Shown here one piece after another: positions 1,555-56,256 of a stretch of 64,000 nt of DNA. Origin of the DNA: Rhea pennata (taxonomy: Eukaryota > Chordata > Aves > Rheiformes > Rheidae); NCBI RefSeq assembly GCF_028389875.1, contig NC_084687.1, positions 4,872,157 to 4,936,156 of the forward strand, in the 5' to 3' direction. Below the pieces are notes generated by a model that was not told where the DNA came from, did no database searches, and saw only the letters and a list, made by a program, of their open reading frames with translations. A program made the translations under genes and the position numbers. The number at the start of each line of letters is the position of its first letter. Positions within the stretch are counted from its first letter, which is position 1.

Positions 1555-27391
<25,837 letters not shown>

Positions 27392-30300: not shown

Positions 30301-32010
30301 ATAAATTATGTTGGTATGGCTGGTTGCTTAAAGTATAAATGTTTATTGTGCATACATCTTATGTAAAGTATTTTTTCTATTTAGTTTCCGTGATATACTG
30401 GCAGCAGATGACTATTGGGTTAAGTTATTGAGGACATTATAAAACCATTGGGGGAGATTGGTGCTCTACACTAAAAGGCATGGTTGGCAGCATGAACTTC
30501 TGGGGACTTCTCTGCAACATGCCTTGAAGGAGGGGGGGAGATTTTTGCTTTGTTTGATCTGCCACGAGTGTGCACAGGGGAAGAGTGCCATGCCAGACAG
30601 GAACTGAAGTAATACCCTGTGATACATGTTAACTTGCCTTGGAATGCTTTGTTATTAAAACACTCTGAACATAATTTTGCATCCAGTTCTTGATAATCGT
30701 AGGGTCTCTGGTGGTGGTGGTTTTCTGTTAAATAAATTGGCAGATTGGTACCAAAGACATTACATCACTTCCTGTGTGCATTGCTGAACAGTCCTTTTCA
30801 GGCATTTGCATTGTGATTAGGTTTTCTTTTATTTGCACAGGAATTACACTTAATTTTCAAAGGTTTTGTGCAATAAGCTTTGAGGAAAAAAATCGAAACA
30901 ATCTCAAGAAGGAAAAAAACTAAACCAAATTTTAGCATGGGCGGCCTTTGGCTTTCCCCAGCGGAGCAGCAGATGTCCTCTAATGCTCAACCACTGCTTC
31001 GTGTAGTGATGTGATGTTGGGGTTAATGGGAAGCCCCCTCCCAGCTGCAGCGAGGGCCTGTCCAGCAGCCTGTATCCACCTCCTGTCACCAGCCACAGTC
31101 TTTGCAGGACTGCAGCACCCAAGCAGCCTTGAGGCGGACATCTCCCCGGAGCCCTCCGGGAAAGGGGTGCTTGGACCTGCCGCAGTCACTCCTCACCACT
31201 GCACCCAGCTCCTGTGCATTGGTCAACCTGTTGGTCAACGCGCTCTTCTTCCTGTCCCTACCAGCAAGACTTTAGGCATGTGGCCGTTCCTTTCCTCTCC
31301 AGCATCTTCTTGCTAAGGCTGTCTACTGAGGTTGGCTGCTCTCTGGCTGTCCTGCCTCTGCTATCCTCCTGCTCAAACCAACAGCAACAAAAAAAGCTCA
31401 GTTTTCCTTCAAAGCCCATGGCTAAAACTGTCTTTAGTTTATTTCCTCCCCTTAAATAAAAATATATATATATATACAGTATTAAACTGACATTTGTGTG
31501 TGTATATATATTTATCCAGTGCTCTTGCAACAAAACTTCCTTTCGAAGAGAGCACACAGATCTGAGTTTTTCTTTTTCCAGTAACTCATATAATAAGCAC
31601 TGGTATTTTTGTATAAAAAAACAGAAAACTACGAAACAAAAGGCTGAATACTATGTGGTATGCATGACATCAAAAAAAAATGGTGGTTTCAAAGCAATAT
31701 GTACCCTGGTGTGTTTGCCATTTCCTAGAGTCCAGCTTAAAGTGCACCTGATCTGTATTGCATTTTGATATTAATCTCTATGTACAATGTTTTGCATGTA
31801 ATTTATATGGTTCTTGGGAGAAAAAATTTTTGAATGAACTGTCAGCTGCTTCTGAGAAAAGACTCCAAGCAGGGGTAATACTCAAATTGGACGCCGAAGA
31901 GTGGTTATGGGGTGGGAAAGGGGTGCATATGAAAAAAATAAATAAAAAGTATGCTGGGGGTGGGGGAGAAGATTAATGGTTTTCAATCAATAAAGCTTTG
32001 GCTGTTGAGC
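27392..32010 (+). other. ATP2B4: ATP2B4 3' UTR
   Basis: AT-rich, with U- and AU-rich stretches and several poly(A) signals. A proximal AATAAA at 30136-30141 is followed by GU-rich sequence, and other hexamers occur between it and the distal signal at 31989. A UTR of about 4.6 kb fits the long human ATP2B4 3' UTR. Open frames inside (for example 28869-29582 on + and 28793-29533 on -) show no protein similarity that I recognise. Confidence 0.75.
31989..31994 (+). terminator. ATP2B4: ATP2B4 distal poly(A) signal AATAAA
   Basis: Last strong hexamers before the ZC3H11A CpG island. A second AATAAA at 32039-32044 precedes GU-rich sequence (gtgtaactgtg, ccgtgtgtcc), so cleavage could be near 32010 or near 32065. 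Confidence 0.7.
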
Positions 32011-32151
32011 AGAAACAAATGCGCGAGTGCATCCAGAGAATAAAACGTGCCCACGTGTAACTGTGACGTCCTCCGTGTGTCCACCATCTTCTCAAGGGGC
32101 TGCGCTTGCCCTGGGGGGAGCCGTGGCTTTCTGTGGGGTGGGGAGATGGAC

Positions 32152-32249
32152 GGGGCTCAGCGAGAGCCACCTCGCCATGGGTCTTCTCTTGCTCTTCTTC
32201 GGGGCTCAGCGAGAGCCACCTCGCCATGGGTCTTCTCTTGCTCTTCCTC
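32152..32249. repeat. Tandem duplication, two 49-bp copies
   Basis: Copies at 32152-32200 and 32201-32249 differ at one visible base. Each contains gccatggg followed by a CT-rich tail. The repeat lies between the ATP2B4 poly(A) signals and the ZC3H11A promoter. Confidence 0.95.
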
Positions 32250-32449
32250 GGAGGCCGGTGCTGGCCTGGCTGCACCTGTTGGCTTTGCCCAACTCACGGC
32301 TTCTTCCCTCTCCAAGTGTGCTCCAGGGCTGAGTATCTGACAGCTCCTGGGCGCTGCCCCATAGCGGAAACCACCTCCCCTGCGGTGCCCCCAAGGTTGT
32401 CGTCTCCATGGCCTGGGCGCTGGGTGTGAGCCGTGGCCTCCTGCTCCGT

Positions 32450-33700
32450 GGCGGGATCCCACCCGGACAAGGATGAGGGGAAACGAAGGCGGCCTGCGAA
32501 GGCCCGCGTCGCTCCCGGGCCTTGACCGAGCGACCGCCCTTCTCCAGGCCCAGGCGCCACACGGGGCCAGGGCGAGGCCCGTGCTTGCAGCCCTGGAAAA
32601 CCCTGACGAGAAACAAGCGACTTCCAGCTCGGGAAAAGCCGCCCCCGGGTGGACTCGGGCCCGCTTGCGCTGGCCCCAGACGGAGGTTTCCGCCATGGCG
32701 GCAGACAGAGCGAGGCGCCCGCAGGCCCGGGCCGCAGCAGGGGCTGAGGGCGTGGCAGGCGGGAAGGAGGGGGGTTCGCTGCGGGTTTCCCTCAGGTTTT
32801 GTTCAGGGATCGAGAAACTCAGGGAGACGCTTGGCAGCAGCAGGAAGAGGAGGAGGAGGAGGAGGAAGGAAAGACCCGCCCGCGCCGTTCTCTTCGCCCC
32901 TCCCTCCCGCGCCGCGATTATCGCTGTGTTACGCGGCGCCGCCCGCGCGTCGCTGTGTGCCGTGGCGGGAGGGACGCGAGACCCCGCCCTCATGCGTCAA
33001 GCGGGCGGAAGCAGGCTCGAGTGAAGCCGCGCCGGCCGCCATCTTAGCAGCGGGCGCGCGGAGGTGCCCGTATGTTGAGCGCCATCTTTGAGGCTGGCAG
33101 TGGTGAAGGCGACGGCCTGAGCGGTGGCTCCGGTGGAGCGAGGGGACGAGGCGACGGCGGCGGCAGCGGCAGCAGCAGCAGCAGCTCCCCAAGGGTTCGG
33201 TAAAGTGCCTGCTCGCCGGTAACTAGAGCCGTTCATAGACCGGCGGGGGAAGGGCCTGGGGTTGCGTCCCCGCCAGGCCCCGGGGCCCCTGCGCTCTCCT
33301 CGGCGGGGGGAGCAGGCCGCAGCCCCCGCGCCCGGCGGCCCAGGCCGCGGCCCCATCCCCGTCCCCTCGCGGCGGGGGGTCCTTAGGCAGGCGGCGGCGG
33401 CGGCGGCTCCTCCCCACTTCTACGGGGCAGCCCGGGCTCCCCCGGCGAGGGAGCGGCAGCCGGGGCGCTCCTCCGGGGCCTGGCGGGGGGAGCCGCTCCC
33501 GGCGGCCGGAGGCTGGGCCCCAAGGGCCCTCTCCCCCTCGCAGCAGGGCCGCTGCCTCCCCCTCCCCGCCCCGCCGCCCTTCCTGCGGTCCTTCGCCCTT
33601 CCTGCAGGCCTTGGCTGCCCTCCCCGGCCAGGGTGCCCTTCCCTGCGGTCTCCCGGGGGAAGAGAGACCTCGGAGTGGCTCCAGACGTATTTGAGTACGT
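32450..33700 (+). promoter_or_regulatory. ZC3H11A: CpG-island promoter of ZC3H11A
   Basis: Very CpG-dense and TATA-less. Two YY1-type motifs, ccgccatctt at 33036-33045 and gcgccatctttg at 33079-33090, mark the likely transcription start; YY1 sites are often at or just after the start site of housekeeping genes. The exact start cannot be read from sequence. Confidence 0.85.
33040..33199 (+). other. ZC3H11A: ZC3H11A 5' UTR exon 1 (start approximate)
   Basis: Ends with the donor gttcg|gtaaag. It contains an upstream ATG at 33072 that stays open to the exon end (42 codons, Gly/Ser-rich). If exon 1 joins 40931 directly, this uORF would end after about 51 codons at TGA, upstream of the main ATG. 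Confidence 0.7.
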
Positions 33701-34839
33701 TTCTGACCCCAATACAATGCCTGACGAGGACAGGATAGGCTATTCCGCGGTGAAAGCTTGTGCCTTCTTTTTGTAGCAATGCATATGAGGAGTATGCTGT
33801 AAACTAGTCATCTGACAGACTGCTCCTCCATTCCCCAAAGCAACTGCCTTCAGGATCTGACTAACTCTGGGTGCACCCAGTTGTCATAATTGTCATAATT
33901 TCTCCTTCAATTCCTTTTAAAAAGGAAGGAGTGATTTTTTTTTTGTTGTTGTTTCTTAAGAATCTGATCCTGCAACTTTCTGTTTTCTTATACTGAAGTT
34001 TATAGCGCAAGTGCAAAAGTCACTTTTGCCGCTGTAACAGTCAGTTTGTGGAGTTCACGGAACTGGTTGTTTGGGGTTCCTGCTGCACTCAGAAATCAAG
34101 TTCTGAGCCCTACTTTCAAAATACAAAGTTGTGTTACTTGATTAAAAAAAAGAACTATCCAGGAAATGGGTGATTTTGAAGCAAAATTGGAACCAGTTGT
34201 ATTGGACACCCAATAAGCTGATCAGGCTGAACGGATAGGATTTTTTTTTCTGGATGGCCTAGTGGTACAGGAAGAAAGCTTAGAGAAAACTTCTCTTGCT
34301 GTCCCTTCTCATCTAAAATGGCACCCTTCCAAATGACTGCTTCCAGAGGAAATTGACTCTTTTTGAGATTTAATAAAACATTTCAGTGAGGAAGATGAAT
34401 TGTCATTATTTCCATAATAAGTTGCTGTCAGGGCCTGGCATTGATTTCAGACATATAAAAAGAATGAGTGTATGTTTGTTCAGCATGCTAGTCTCCCCTG
34501 AGAGCAACTGCAGCAGCTTCATCAGTGCCCTCAGTCTGAAATTTATTTCTAATGCCAGTCCTGACAGCAAGGAGGAAAAGTTGATGGTGGACAGAGGGAA
34601 AGGTAGAAGAGAGCCACCTATTAGTATAGGGAAGAAGGGGTTATGGACTAAGGGAAAGCCACTACATTTGGGAAAAAAAATACTATCTAAAAATTTGTTA
34701 AGGATTTGGGCCTGCAGGTGCTGCTACAGCTGCAGGTGCTGCAGCTGCAGAAGTCATGTCTGTTGCTGCTGAGCAAGATGGAGAGAGCTGCTTTTTGGAG
34801 TGCAATACGTTAAAGCTTGTACTGTTGCCTAGAAGAAGA

Positions 34840-35016
34840 GCAAAGGTTTCTCTTTGTGGGACTTCTTCCGTGTTGATCCTTGGTTTACCTGGTATGCCAT
34901 CTCCAGCATACGTGTAAGGAGAAGAGAGGAAAAACAAACAAAAAAACATTGGCTATGATAAGCCACGTACTTACCTGAGGACATCGACTCTACAGTAATA
35001 CCTCCAAGTCAAGCAT
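34840..35016 (+). pseudogene. ZBED6: ZBED6 relic: first BED finger
   Basis: RAKVSLC changes frame into DFFRVDPWFTWYAIS, a further frame gives KPRTYLRTSTLQ, and an in-frame stop precedes YLQVKH. Both zinc-ligand cysteines expected after the AI are replaced (AISSIR), and the first ligand His is Tyr, while the last His remains. The finger could not fold around zinc as written. Confidence 0.9.
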
Positions 35017-35401
35017 TTTGTGCATCGAACCATGGCTAACAAAATAAGTGTCACAGCTGGAAGTACTGTAAGGGAGGAAGAATTTGCCTTTAGTACGTCT
35101 GTGTCAGCCATCTCCCCAGATAGCAGTTATAGCAGTGGGAGTTTGATGCATGTTCCCAACTCTTTTGCAGTGATGATGTAGAAAAGTCAGTGGGCTTTTT
35201 TTTTCAACTCAGAGAAGCAGGAATGGACTCTAATTACACCCAGGTAAATCAGAGCTGTCAAAAAGAGTTTCCAGAGATGTGGGTCATATCAGTACAATTA
35301 CAGCAGCCATTGCAGCTGCAGCAGTAGTTGTTCCTGGAGCATCTGGAGAAAATAGAGGGAGTTTTCTTTGTGAAAGCAGTACTGACAAAAGCATTTTGAT
35401 G

Positions 35402-35576
35402 CCAGAAATCAGGATAAAGACATCTGCTGCCTGGATTTTCTTCTCTGTTGATGCTCAATATTCATGACAGACATCTTTGTCATGTCTGCAATGTGTCTAA
35501 TAATTGTGTCAGTCAAGGCAAGCCAGGGGCTCGCCTTGGCATTTCCATGCTGCTGCAACAATTGCAGGTCATGCAC
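35402..35576 (+). pseudogene. ZBED6: ZBED6 relic: second BED finger
   Basis: KTSAAWIFFSVDAQYS ends at a stop. Another frame resumes with HVCNVSNNCVSQGKPGARLG and LQVMHPIRWA. The first ligand Cys is kept, the second is Ser, the first His is Gln and the last His is kept. The two fingers remain recognisable as duplicates of each other (GKPGARLGIS versus KPRTYLRTS). Confidence 0.9.
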
Positions 35577-38500
35577 CCTATACGCTGGGCCAGGATCTAA
35601 AAATCTGATGGTGCAGTTGGTAATGATGAAGTTCGGGAAGCACTTGTGGATTCTTCTACCATTCCACAAGAATTCTTGAGGTGAAAATTTGAGCTATTTC
35701 TTTTCAAGGAATAAGCTTACAGCAAGCTGTGTTTAGCATCTCCAGGTTTGGGTGTTCCTACTGCAGCTTCATCTACTGAGCCGAGTCTTGGTAGGAGAAA
35801 GACTACAAATGCTAGCTGTCAGACTCAGAGACTCTCAACTACCTATTGCTGTGAAGAAACTGAGATTAGAGAATGTAGTTGCATAACAGAGAAATGGAAG
35901 TATTACAAAATTGATTATTTAAGATTTTTTTTCCCCAAACACAAGCTTTTCACAAACTCATACGGACTGTGGCATGAAGTGATCAGTTGCCATCTAGAAC
36001 ACACTCTTTCACAGAAGTGGTTGTGGAAGGTTTTGGAGAAAACAGAATGCAGAAAAATGCATTTAGCAATTGATAAGTGAACCTGTGAACTCACTACAGA
36101 CCACCTGACAGTGATGGCCTATTGGCTATCTTGTGATAAGCTGCCTTCCTCTGACTGCCGCAGCAGAAGTCCCCTTTTAGAGAATGGGCAGCTCACTGTA
36201 GCTGGCTTCGCTAAAAATTCTACAGCAGCAAGTGTCCTACAAGAACCAAGTTACCAAATTGGCATGTGGTTTTTCCTGATTCCCTCACCCTTGGCTTTGT
36301 AGCATTTGACAACACTGTGGCAACACCTGGCACTGTTATCAGTACCGTGTTTTACATATATTTCAAGTTTAGTGATTTAGAACTTCCTCAGAGCAAGAGC
36401 ACTGAGAACATCTTAGCAGTTGCTTAAGAGATTTGCTGTCACTTTCTCATTCTGCTAAGGCCCATCAAATTCTTCAGGAAATCCAGGATGCAAATCATCT
36501 TTCACAGAATCTGCTGGAGCAGGAAATAGCCACTCAGTGGACATCTGCCTTTTATGTGTTAAAGCAACTGTAGAGCAGCAGAAGGTGGAGCACAGCTACT
36601 GCGTGCAGCCTCCTCCTGGGAGGGTGGATGGGGCTATTCTCAACTCATTCCAGAGGTCCCTGATGTCACATGCGTGTGACATTCTTAAGCCATTTGTTTG
36701 CGGCAACCACTCCGGAACTGCGGGCGTGCACTGCAGGTCCTGCTCGAGTGCTGCTGTCCTCGGTTTGCCTCCTCCTGACTTTGCAGGATCTGTGGAAAGA
36801 CTCAAATCAAAGGTGCTTCTGTGGCTCTTGAACTGGGGAATGATTTGTCTTAGTCTTGAAACCAATTCTCTGCTGAGGTGGGCACTCAAATCCGAACACT
36901 TCACCTTGGCCACCTTAGATCTGTACTTTAAAGGCAGTTTTGAAGAACTGCTGGGTTTTTGAAGTGTTTAGCTGTAGAGAAATCTGTATTGAATGAGTGT
37001 CTGATCAGATATCTGCTTCAGTACAGGGTTATGTTTTGAAAGTTACAGAAGTGTTAGGCCGGTCAGCCTTTTAGGAACAGACTGATTTGCCTCTGACCTT
37101 AACTCAGGCACCATAAAGTGGCTCATCTTCAAACAGTTGCTGCAGCCACCAAGAGGCTGTTGTGCTCCTTAGCTGTGGCAACCGTAGAATTCTCCGAGGT
37201 CAGAATAAAAGGTGAGCGCTGGCTTGTCGGCGGAGGAGGCTCGCGGTGGCCGTGTTCGCTCACGCTGCTGTTCTTGGCTGGCAGCCTTGCAGTCTTCGCT
37301 CTGAGTGGGTCGTGAGTGACATGTTGTCCCCTGTCCCTCCCCACCCTCCTCAGTTTCTGAATGTGCACCTAGTCTAGGATTAGATACTGTTGAACAGCTA
37401 GAATTCATTAAAACAAGTCTAAGGAGTATTAATTGCAAGTGTTCCACTGTTAGCTTTAGACTTTGATAGAGGATGAGATCCCTTGTAGTAGGGAGGAGGT
37501 ATTAGCAAGAGAGTATTCTGTGCTTCAGACCATTGGAAGTGCTGAATACGTACAGTTTATGTAGGCACTATGTGCACTATTTCTTACGATTTTTTAACAC
37601 CTAGTGCACATTGCACTTTCAGCTATGGAATGCGCTAACAAGTGGGTGAATCGAGTGGTCTGTTTTGCAGCCGAGATAACACTGACAGATTGAAAAGTGA
37701 GATTGGAACGTGCAGTTCTTGGTGCTCTTCCTTCCTTGTCTTCTGATTGTCAACTCGTACGTAGCCTCTTATGAAGAGGGGTGTTAAGCACATTTGCTGT
37801 TTTGTAATGAGTTAAAGGCACACAAAAATAGACCAGGAATAGAGACTGTCAAAGCTAAAGTAGTTTGTGCTTTATGACCAAAAAGTACCTGTAGGTATAT
37901 GCCTAGTTAAGCACAGTGCTGTAAGTACTGAATAATCCTTCCTTTGTGTGTGTTGGAGTGGAGAAGAAGAAAAATTTGTTGTTCCCCTTTTGCTTTTCTG
38001 TGAATTCAGTAGAAGACAAATGCTGGTCACCAAGCTGGAAGCTTAAAATGAATTCAAAATGTTAAGTGCAGCTCAATCTTAATAGAAAAACTTTACTACA
38101 ATTCTGGAAGGAGGGGGGAGGGAGGGAAAAAAAAAAAAAAAAAAGGCCTTAAAATTCTTACCAGCTTTTGAGAGACTTGCTGAGTGCACCAGAGTTACTC
38201 ATTTTTATTTGGGCTTTCAGGTGTTAGTTAAGTTGAATGCTGCTTAGCACTCAGATTGCCAAGTTAACTGACCTCAGTTAAAAAGAAAAAAAAGGTCTCT
38301 GAGTTATTCCCCCCCTTTTTTTTTTCAATGAAAGAACTTTTCTGGAATTTATAGCGGTGAGTTTTTGTTTTGTTTTAGTCTTACTTTCTTCCCATTCCTG
38401 AACAAGATATATTCAGATTCAAATTCTGAACAGCAGTCAAAGTGTATTCAGAAATAAGGAAGGCAACAAGCAAAATGTGTTAAATTTAAGCAGCTGAGCT

Positions 38501-40139
38501 GCTTGGACATTTGAAAGAGCTAATCTGTAGGGGCTTTTTTTTTTTTTTTTTCCTTTTTCTCCCCCCCCCCCCCACATTGTGATGGATATAGTAACCCTAC
38601 ATTATACAGGTGGCTGACACTCTTCCTATGAAAAAGAAATACAGCCTTCTAGACCATGAATTCCTTCTGATTTGGATTTGAAAATCTCTGCTTAGCAAAG
38701 CAGTGGTCTTTAATTACCATCTGTTTAAGTGCTGATTTATGCAAACTGAAGAAATCATGCTTGGAATTGCATTAATTAACAATGATATTGGTAAAACATT
38801 TGGCAATATATTTCTTGTCAAACTTGCATGCAAAAGAGCACCAGTAATCTTTAGAAGCTGCATAGGAGTTTGTATGACACAAAGTTTGGTTTTGAAGGTG
38901 CTAAGAGTCAAAAGTTGAATAAACATACCAATACTGAAGAAGGAAAGAGACATTGCTCTTAATTTCTGTTTTTATTCCCTTTGTCAAGCAGTCAAATACA
39001 GTAACTAATACAAGAACTCAACTTCTCCTCTCTTTATTTTAGATTTGGGAAAATTCCCTGCCAAAAAAAAATATCCTGGAAAATTCACTAGTGTTTGTGT
39101 GAGTAAAAGGTTCCAACCTTTTATTATTAATTTGTAAGAAGTATTTAATTCAGTTTTGTCCAAAAGAGTCAGAAATGTTTAGCAGAGAAGTGTGTAGCGT
39201 TTTAGTGATAGGGATCAGAATCACTTTAATTTGTTTCTGTTTTTTTTTTTTTTTTTTTTTAATCTGGTCTGGTTGCAGGTTTTATAGCATTTAGTATATA
39301 TGAAAATTAGAAACAAAATATCTGACTTCGCATCAAAAAGCTGCTTGTGGCTAAATGGAATCAATTTCAGCTTCTGCAGCATCCAAAAAAATCATTAACT
39401 GTTAAGAATTGGACCTAAACAATCTTTTCAAACCTTTGATCTTGCAGCAATAGATAATGGTGGATATATGGATTGGGGAACAGCATGTGGTGGCAAACTT
39501 GTAGTATTTGTTCTCATGTAAAATTATATATATCCCAAAATCCTAATAATTCAAAATTCTTAGTATCATGCAGCCATGCCACTTCCAAAGTGAGCATTTC
39601 CCTGCCTCTCAAAGCTTGCTGTATCCTTGATCTGCTGTCTTCCTGCTCTTAATTTGGTTGCGACTCCAGATGTCTGATTAGGGCTAAAAGTATTGCTTTT
39701 GGTTATATACAACATATACTGTGCACGCTTATGTGTATAGATATGTTTATACTGTATGCATGTACATAAGTATGCATATTTGTATGCTGGCCCCCAAATC
39801 ACTCACATTATAAAGCATCAGCCTTGAAGGAATATTCATCAAAATATAATGTAGCACTTTCATTTTTGCCGGTTCCCTCAAAATGAGACGCTTTTTATGC
39901 ACCCTACTTGGCCAATAACCAAAACGTCTAATTTTTTGTTACCACTCCTGCTGATTTTATTATCACTCACTGTTGGCGTGTGTATAAACACATATGTGTA
40001 TATGTATATGCACATTTGTGTATTTATATGCACAAGTATGTTTTTGCTATGCAGGTAATAAAGATGGGGGAAGATTTTTGTGTTTTCTTAATAGGTGAAG
40101 AAATCTTGAAGACCAGAAATTGGAACTTACTGAATTTTA

Positions 40140-40178
40140 AATTAAATATATATATATATTATATATATGTATATATAA
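40140..40178. repeat. (AT)n microsatellite in ZC3H11A intron 1
   Basis: Runs of atatat broken by tt and gt in the 3' part of the intron. Confidence 0.9.
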
Positions 40179-40930
40179 ATTGTCCGGCTGTGGAAGATGG
40201 ATCTTCATTTTTGCAGCCACTTTGAATCACAAGTTCATCTTTAAATGAACTGGGTTTTTTTTTTTTTTTTGAAGAGCTAACTAACCCTGGCTGTCTCCAG
40301 TCTGACAGAGTATTCAAATGGACTTGCTTCCTCCATTAGTTATAAGATGTTTAAAAGCACATCCTGTGTTTGAATTGTGGATGAGAGGTTCCCTTGGCAA
40401 TGTGAGGAGGAAAATTCTTTCTACCCCTTTATTATTAATTCACGGATTCAGTGTTGGTTCGGCCTACAGGAGAAGTTAACTGGAAGTCTTTGAAGATCAG
40501 TACCTTTGCTGAGATTGTCCAGGTGGGTGAACTTGAAGATCCACTGCAGTTGGAAAATAATGTTTCAAATGTCAAATTGTATTTTGTAGAAATCATTTAG
40601 TACCCATAGCTAATCATTGACTGATAACTCAACTGTAGGATCGCTTTTTTAAGAAGTAGCTCTGGTATTGTGATTAAAGCTAGATGCAGCGTTTTTTTCT
40701 GTGCTCTGAGGCACGTAAATATTGCTAAGAATGTAGAAGAGTGTGTTTTGTGACAAATTCATGCAAATTTACTTTTTTGTGTGTGTGTGTGTGTGCGCTG
40801 GGATAATTTTGTAACCAGCTAATTTCTAGACATTGCACCCTTTTCAAAACTAATTCAATTAACTGAAGGAAGCTGGAAAAATGCATAGTACTTTATAATT
40901 GGATTTTTGTTCACTTAATGCTTTCTTCAG

Positions 40931-52158
<11,228 letters not shown>

Positions 52159-52849: not shown

Positions 52850-52884
<35 letters not shown>
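52850..52884. repeat. Poly(T) run, 35 nt
   Basis: Uninterrupted T tract inside the ZC3H11A 3' UTR, directly after a short C run. Confidence 0.95.

Positions 52885-54476: not shown

Positions 54477-56256
<1,780 letters not shown>

What the first reader, a model, noticed from the sequence alone, without database searches (positions are those of the whole stretch)
34464..37466. Full-length ZBED6 relic in the same ZC3H11A intron as in placental mammals
Seen: consecutive blocks in changing frames follow ZBED6 from MSVC to the C-terminal VEQLEF(I)K segment, over 3.0 kb, on the same strand and in intron 1 of ZC3H11A. Clear matches include TSTLQ, GKPGARLGIS, HPIRWA, SAKAHQILQEIQD, CDILKPF and LDTVEQLEFIK. 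Known (from memory): ZBED6 is a domesticated hAT-type transposase described as arising in an early mammal and functional in placentals. Inferred: a positional orthologue in a sauropsid means the insertion predates the mammal-sauropsid split.
Basis: partly seen in the sequence, partly recalled or inferred. Interest (0 to 1): 0.95.

Follow-up and report, generated by a model that had tools for sequence, protein, structure and literature searches.

The report
Dead ZBED6 gene in a bird
A bird genome carries a nearly complete but broken copy of ZBED6, a transposon-derived growth-control gene thought to be specific to mammals, at the same place inside the gene ZC3H11A, so the gene is probably older than the split between mammals and reptiles and birds.

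Summary
Confirmed, with strong support. It covers residues 1-959, with 351 of 888 aligned codons identical, 20 frameshifts and 14 stops. The best off-locus score is 61, the best of 100 shuffles 62; ZBED4 scores 139 and ZBED1 49. In a tree with this genome's intact ZBED4 and ZBED1 the relic joins ZBED6 (100/100). DNA search finds one copy, in the inferred first intron of ZC3H11A (33200-40930). The genome is a bird's: 1.27 Gb, bird-like contig sizes, at least 150 feather-keratin matches. The integration therefore predates the mammal-sauropsid split, while papers seen call ZBED6 placental- or mammalian-specific. Decay simulations suggest that the frame stayed open long after that split and died roughly 60-285 Myr ago (medians 120-160); death at the split gave 0 of 500 matches on both score and stops. 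If so, placentals kept an ancient gene that this bird's line lost. Limits: recalled reference protein, one species, model-dependent dating.

The parts
34464..37451 (+). ZBED6 pseudogene, residues 1-959 of the 980 recalled traceable; 20 frameshifts and 14 stops (9 in matched, 5 in inserted codons) in the conservative alignment
37452..37504 (+). possible remnant of residues 960-979 (only under cheaper frameshift penalties)
34837..35043 (+). relic of BED1 (ends counted by hand from the alignments); scores 128 against human BED1 and 94 against BED2; at least one zinc ligand changed (H to Y, also in tblastn), a second (C to S) in the alignment used
35411..35603 (+). relic of BED2 (ends counted by hand from the alignments); scores 142 against human BED2 and 135 against BED1; one zinc ligand changed (H to Q, also in tblastn)
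35939..37112 (+). relic of the hAT transposase-like core
33200..40930 (+). inferred first intron (5' UTR) of ZC3H11A that holds the relic
   Evidence: splice-like signals only
41080..52155 (+). ZC3H11A coding exons; 12 stretches picked from the tblastn matches read without a stop; 466 of 710 aligned residues identical to recalled human
54477..56253 (+). SNRPE exons, four pieces identical to recalled human protein; LSM domain in one
2622..17611 (+). plasma-membrane calcium pump exons (nearest solved structures are pumps 2 and 1; ATP2B4 by recalled gene order); three Pfam hits, one over its cut-off
32001..33700 (+). CpG island, likely ZC3H11A promoter and exon 1

Best explanation
The sequence is the orthologue of placental ZBED6, now a pseudogene, in a bird. 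The intronless ZBED6 coding sequence, with its N-terminus, two BED domains and hAT core, sat in the first intron of ZC3H11A in the common ancestor of mammals and sauropsids (shown by position plus sequence). It probably stayed an intact, selected gene on the line to birds for a long time, presumably made from transcripts of the ZC3H11A promoter that keep intron 1 (inferred; the shared promoter in mammals is stated in PMC8035546). It was then lost, roughly 60-285 Myr ago with medians of 120-160 (inferred by simulation), and has since decayed as probably inert intronic DNA. The confidence given is for the orthologous pseudogene; for the long functional life on the sauropsid line I give 0.75 (see the section on the most novel reading).
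For: Nearly full-length collinear match from the start codon, score 773 against controls of at most 62. Closer to ZBED6 (39.5% of 888 codons even after decay) than ZBED4 is to ZBED6 (29-30%). Tree of 7 proteins: relic with ZBED6, 100/100. N-terminus and inter-BED linker match above controls. Same strand, same intron, same neighbours. One copy in 1.27 Gb by DNA search, and none of the 6 BED matches of the genome lies in another two-BED gene. Bird identity. Dating: the 60 of 2,091 decay simulations nearest the data have post-death divergence 0.19 (middle 95% 0.10-0.40) by six measures and 0.24 (0.13-0.41) by four, below the 0.46-0.49 expected since the amniote split from rates in PMC2911116; 0 of 500 simulations of death at the split reached both the observed score and 14 or fewer stops, against 96 of 300 with divergence 0.15-0.30. 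The recall is checked in part: its residues 61-80 and 231-248 are basic stretches where PMC2780926 reports nuclear localisation signals; Pfam finds two BEDs and the hAT dimerisation region in it; ZBED4 and ZBED1 typed the same way are 79% and 84% identical to genes read from this genome.
Against: The reference protein is recalled, not fetched. Pfam finds no BED or hAT family in the relic, neither in ten pieces nor in a read-through. The post-BED linker gives no signal alone, and relic BED2 is barely nearer human BED2 than BED1. The tree program warns of long branches, the relic among them. In the dating, starting identity, indel rate and divergence trade off. By stops alone the middle 95% is 0.08-0.43, close to the amniote split at its top. 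In the grid, starting identity 0.9 with divergence 0.45 and indel ratio 0.05 gave mean score 714, identity 0.387 and 20 frameshifts, near the data except for 26 stops. In the null set 22 of 500 reached the score alone, and 12 of 500 had 14 or fewer stops with at least 800 codons. The set with divergence 0.15-0.30 and identity 0.70-0.85 has a median score of 1414, well above the observed 773, so the relic is more decayed than that set is typically. Only one species was seen. Xenopus ZBEDX, which also has two BED domains, was not available.
Confidence: 0.93

Rival explanations
1. The element inserted before the amniote split but never had a function in sauropsids; it has drifted neutrally for about 320 Myr, and function arose only in placentals, as published. 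(Same orthology as the best explanation, other history.)
For: Fits the published view that function evolved after the marsupial-placental split. A decayed copy alone does not show former function; in 22 of 500 simulated cases of this kind the alignment score reached the observed value, and one grid point of this kind is near the data except for its 26 stops.
Against: 0 of 500 simulated cases had both the score and 14 or fewer stops; of 646 broader simulations with divergence 0.42 or more only 1 had score at least 700 with at most 16 stops.
Confidence: 0.15
2. Independent insertion of a related hAT element into the same intron in the sauropsid line.
For: hAT elements are widespread, and this intron begins next to a CpG island (general knowledge).
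Against: Same strand and intron, nearly full-length match including N-terminus and inter-BED linker, one copy in the genome by DNA search, tree position.
Confidence: 0.02
3. Relic of another ZBED gene (ZBED4, ZBED1 or ZBEDX-like), duplicated into this intron.
For: ZBED4 aligns to part of the locus, score 139 recalled and 151 own.
Against: ZBED6 scores 773; the relic is nearer ZBED6 than ZBED4 is. ZBEDX could not be compared.
Confidence: 0.03
4. Chance or the reader's pattern completion.
For: Short blocks in changing frames invite over-reading; Pfam alone sees no BED or hAT family.
Against: Shuffles max 62, off-locus 61, reversed protein 41, against 773; tblastn E 3.8e-26.
Confidence: 0.001

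Closest known systems
ZBED6 of placental mammals (PMC2780926)
   Same: Place (ZC3H11A intron 1), single-exon length of about 3 kb, N-terminus, two BED domains, hAT core, C-terminus
   Different: In a bird; 20 frameshifts and 14 stops; at least one zinc ligand lost in each BED; no ORF
Non-functional ZBED6 sequence at the orthologous place in platypus and opossum (PMC2780926, stated there as unpublished data)
   Same: Dead copy in the same place
   Different: Those are mammals; this one is outside mammals and moves the minimum age of the integration to the amniote ancestor
ZBED4 and ZBED1
   Same: Related hAT-derived BED genes; both with open frames in this genome (1170 and 695 aa)
   Different: Four and one BED matches, other loci, much weaker match to the relic

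Membership tests
ZBED6 orthologue | Sequence closest to ZBED6 over nearly the full length | tested here: met
   Score 773 against 151 (own ZBED4), 43 (own ZBED1), 48 (own 668-aa hAT gene); tree 100/100
ZBED6 orthologue | Lies in intron 1 of ZC3H11A on the same strand | tested here: met
   Inferred intron 33200-40930 and coding exons from 41080; transcripts not seen
ZBED6 orthologue | Two BED domains in order | tested here: met
   Remnants of both, in order; Pfam does not recognise them
ZBED6 orthologue | hAT core and C-terminal part | tested here: met
   Core 407 and residues 861-979 62 against control maxima 57 and 46; Pfam does not detect the dimerisation domain in the relic
ZBED6 orthologue | Single copy | tested here: met
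   One DNA match in the genome
[quoted passage not shown]
   20 frameshifts, 14 stops; longest + strand stop-to-stop stretch in the locus 167 aa
Functional ZBED6 gene | Four zinc ligands in each BED | tested here: not met
   2 of 4 kept in BED1 and 3 of 4 in BED2 in the alignment used; the two cysteines of each BED depend on the alignment, the lost histidines are also seen in tblastn
ZBED6 orthologue | Closer to ZBED6 than to ZBEDX | not tested
   No ZBEDX sequence at hand

The most novel reading that the evidence does not exclude
ZBED6 was already a working, selected host gene in the amniote ancestor, more than 300 Myr ago, and stayed so on the sauropsid line for probably over 100 Myr; the bird line, monotremes and marsupials each lost it, so placentals are survivors and not inventors of the gene. 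Living sauropsids with an intact ZBED6 may exist.
Probability: 0.75. Interest if true: 0.82.

Novelty: new member of a known kind. Interest (0 to 1): 0.74.

Why it matters
ZBED6 is a well-studied transposase domesticated in mammals, with a strong effect on IGF2 and muscle growth. The published account dates the integration to before monotremes diverged and the function to placentals (PMC2780926, passages), and a later paper calls the gene mammalian-specific (PMC8035546, passages). A nearly full-length copy in a bird at the same place moves the integration to the amniote ancestor at the latest, and its moderate decay argues that it was alive on the sauropsid line. This changes the question from how placentals gained ZBED6 to why other amniotes lost it, and makes it testable in public genomes.

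Tried and rejected
Pfam on ten frame pieces: 9 of 10 had no hit, one had three weak hits below their cut-offs, none BED or hAT; 0 families in the relic read-through. CR1 tail patterns and a CR1 protein piece found nothing in the window, and recalled MIR, L2, Mon1 and Alu pieces gave only weak hits (best E 0.002), so repeats could not name the clade; the absence of self-similar repeats (0 pairs at E 1e-6) only hinted at a bird, and the keratin search settled it (its 14 control genomes had no match, but I do not know which genomes these are). Rfam: 0 matches. Scans of viral and prokaryote contigs with one ZC3H11A exon for stray vertebrate relatives confirmed none. Structure prediction was not tried: the relic is a broken frame. 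Papers: of the ten searches nine held the term ZBED6. No title or abstract start that they listed, and no passage that I opened, reports ZBED6 in birds or reptiles. The lists were capped (20 of 41, 20 of 2,969), and I opened only PMC2780926, PMC7786948, PMC8035546, PMC3424704, PMC10027918, PMC6599137 (passages found by terms) and PMC3606216 (passages and section 4), plus PMC2911116 for rates (passages). One of them says that ZBED genes as a family occur in birds and reptiles (PMC10027918), which is not ZBED6. A 2018 PNAS paper tried by id is not held.
Full report
What is there. Between 34464 and about 37.5 kb the + strand holds the remains of a nearly complete ZBED6 coding sequence. The score is 773 at this locus; with the locus cut out the window reaches 52 on the + and 61 on the - strand. 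One hundred dinucleotide shuffles of the locus average 42 and reach 62; the reversed protein scores 41. The alignment begins at the ATG at 34464 and covers residues 1-959: 888 codons aligned, 351 identical, 20 frameshifts, 9 stops in matched and 5 in inserted codons. Cheaper frameshift penalties take it to residue 979 and 37504, with 37 or 47 frameshifts. Ordinary tblastn agrees, with seven pieces of E 3.8e-26 to 4.3e-4 in the locus and a best piece elsewhere of E 0.28.

The reference. I fetched no database copy of ZBED6, so the protein is recalled. Checks: residues 61-80 and 231-248 of the recalled protein are basic stretches at the places that PMC2780926 gives for bipartite nuclear localisation signals of the mouse protein (passages); Pfam finds two BED stretches and the hAT dimerisation region in it; ZBED4 and ZBED1 recalled the same way are 79% and 84% identical to open frames read from this genome. 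A wrong recall could hardly give a collinear match over 959 residues.

Why ZBED6 and not a relative. ZBED4 scores 139 (recalled) or 151 (own), ZBED1 49 or 43, and another BED/hAT gene of this genome 48. The relic is 39.5% identical to ZBED6 over aligned codons even after decay, whereas ZBED6 and ZBED4 share 29-30%. A tree of 7 proteins joins relic and ZBED6 with 100/100 support, although the program warns of long branches, the relic's among them. The N-terminus and inter-BED linker match above shuffled controls (90 against 50, 59 against 46); the post-BED linker does not (37 against 42). Relic BED1 fits human BED1 better than BED2 (128 against 94); relic BED2 fits both almost equally (142 against 135). 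So the BED duplication probably predates the split, but this rests mainly on BED1 and the order of parts. ZBEDX was not at hand.

Where it is. A CpG island spans about 32.0-33.7 kb with a donor-like GTAAAGT at 33200; an acceptor-like AG lies at 40929-40930, before the exon with the ZC3H11A start at 41080. Twelve ZC3H11A stretches picked from the tblastn matches read without stops, and two of those tested carry its zinc-finger family domain. A plasma-membrane calcium pump lies upstream and SNRPE downstream. That this is the human gene order is from memory; that ZBED6 lies in ZC3H11A intron 1 in placentals is in PMC2780926 and PMC3606216 (passages and a section).

Which animal. The genome has 1,268,942,789 bases in 180 contigs; the window lies on contig C25 of 8.35 Mb. 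I saw the lengths of 22 contigs: 217, 165, 130, 82 and 70 Mb, then 44 Mb down to 0.19 Mb, as in bird karyotypes. Feather-type keratin (PF02422) gives 150 matches, all that were scored of 178 candidates. There are no self-similar repeat pairs in the 64 kb. The source is a bird; the sizes suggest a fowl or duck relative (recalled, untested). DNA search finds the relic once, and the 6 BED matches of the genome lie in three open frames of 1170, 695 and 668 aa, none of them ZBED6.

Is it dead, and since when. The frame is broken throughout. In the alignment used, 2 of 4 zinc ligands are kept in BED1 and 3 of 4 in BED2; the lost histidines are also seen in tblastn, while the fate of the cysteines depends on the alignment. 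Of two aspartates that I take for the hAT catalytic motif (recalled), D486 is kept; D565 is kept in one alignment and falls on a stop in the other. I simulated decay of a ZBED6-like frame under a range of starting identity, divergence and indel rate and aligned each result in the same way. Of 2,091 runs, the 60 nearest by all six measures have a median post-death divergence of 0.19, middle 95% 0.10-0.40; by four measures 0.24, 0.13-0.41; by stops alone 0.19, 0.08-0.43. With bird rates from PMC2911116 (passages: 1.33e-9 on the ancestral branch, 1.63e-9 in chicken and 1.90e-9 in finch, split at 105 Myr) and an amniote split at 320 Myr (recalled), the whole sauropsid line is worth 0.46-0.49. The medians give about 120-160 Myr and 0.10-0.41 gives about 60-285 Myr. 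With death at the split (divergence 0.44-0.52, starting identity 0.82-0.95, indel ratio 0.03-0.10) 22 of 500 runs reach the score, 12 of 500 have 14 or fewer stops with at least 800 codons aligned, and none do both of score and stops; with divergence 0.30-0.44, 11 of 300 do both; with 0.15-0.30 and identity 0.70-0.85, 96 of 300 do, though that last set has a median score of 1414, well above the observed. In an earlier grid one point with divergence 0.45, identity 0.9 and indel ratio 0.05 came near the data in score (714), identity (0.387) and frameshifts (20), with 26 stops. If starting identity is set at 0.70-0.85, near that of ZBED4, the fit moves to 0.30 (0.21-0.38), about 200 Myr. So the frame was most likely kept open for a long time after the split. 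This is a model result from one sequence.

What is known. PMC2780926 found no functional ZBED6 outside placentals and non-functional sequence in platypus and opossum (unpublished data there), and inferred integration before monotremes diverged (passages). PMC3606216 lists ZBED6 orthologues in cow, pig, horse, panda, dog and mouse only, although its clock puts ZBED domestication several hundred million years back (section 4). PMC8035546 calls ZBED6 mammalian-specific and reports it undetectable in opossum (passages); two abstract starts in the listings call it unique to placental mammals (PMC8577783; PMC3979763). What I saw of the nine paper searches with ZBED6 held no report of it in birds or reptiles. 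The present locus moves the integration to the amniote ancestor or earlier.

Verdict. It is an orthologue of a known gene, dead here, so a new member of a known kind; its value is in changing the age and history of a well-studied domesticated transposase.

Noticed in passing
L010 2685-4691 (G000 C42, about 615 kb): An open frame of 668 aa with BED and hAT similarity, only 21-24% identical to ZBED6, ZBED4 and ZBED1; a further hAT-derived gene in this bird that I could not name.
   Followed up: partly
window 16677-16711, 52850-52884, 54811-54835: Two homopolymer runs of exactly 35 bases (A and T) and one of 25 T; possibly assembly or sequencing effects.
   Followed up: no
window 32151-32251: A 49-bp unit in two nearly identical tandem copies (98%) at the CpG island near the ZC3H11A promoter.
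   Followed up: no
G000 C2 163.25-163.49 Mb, C10 24.69-24.87 Mb, C26 6.19-6.48 Mb, C41 0.87-1.06 Mb: Large feather-keratin arrays with many identical-scoring copies, at a spacing of about 5.5 kb on C2.
   Followed up: no
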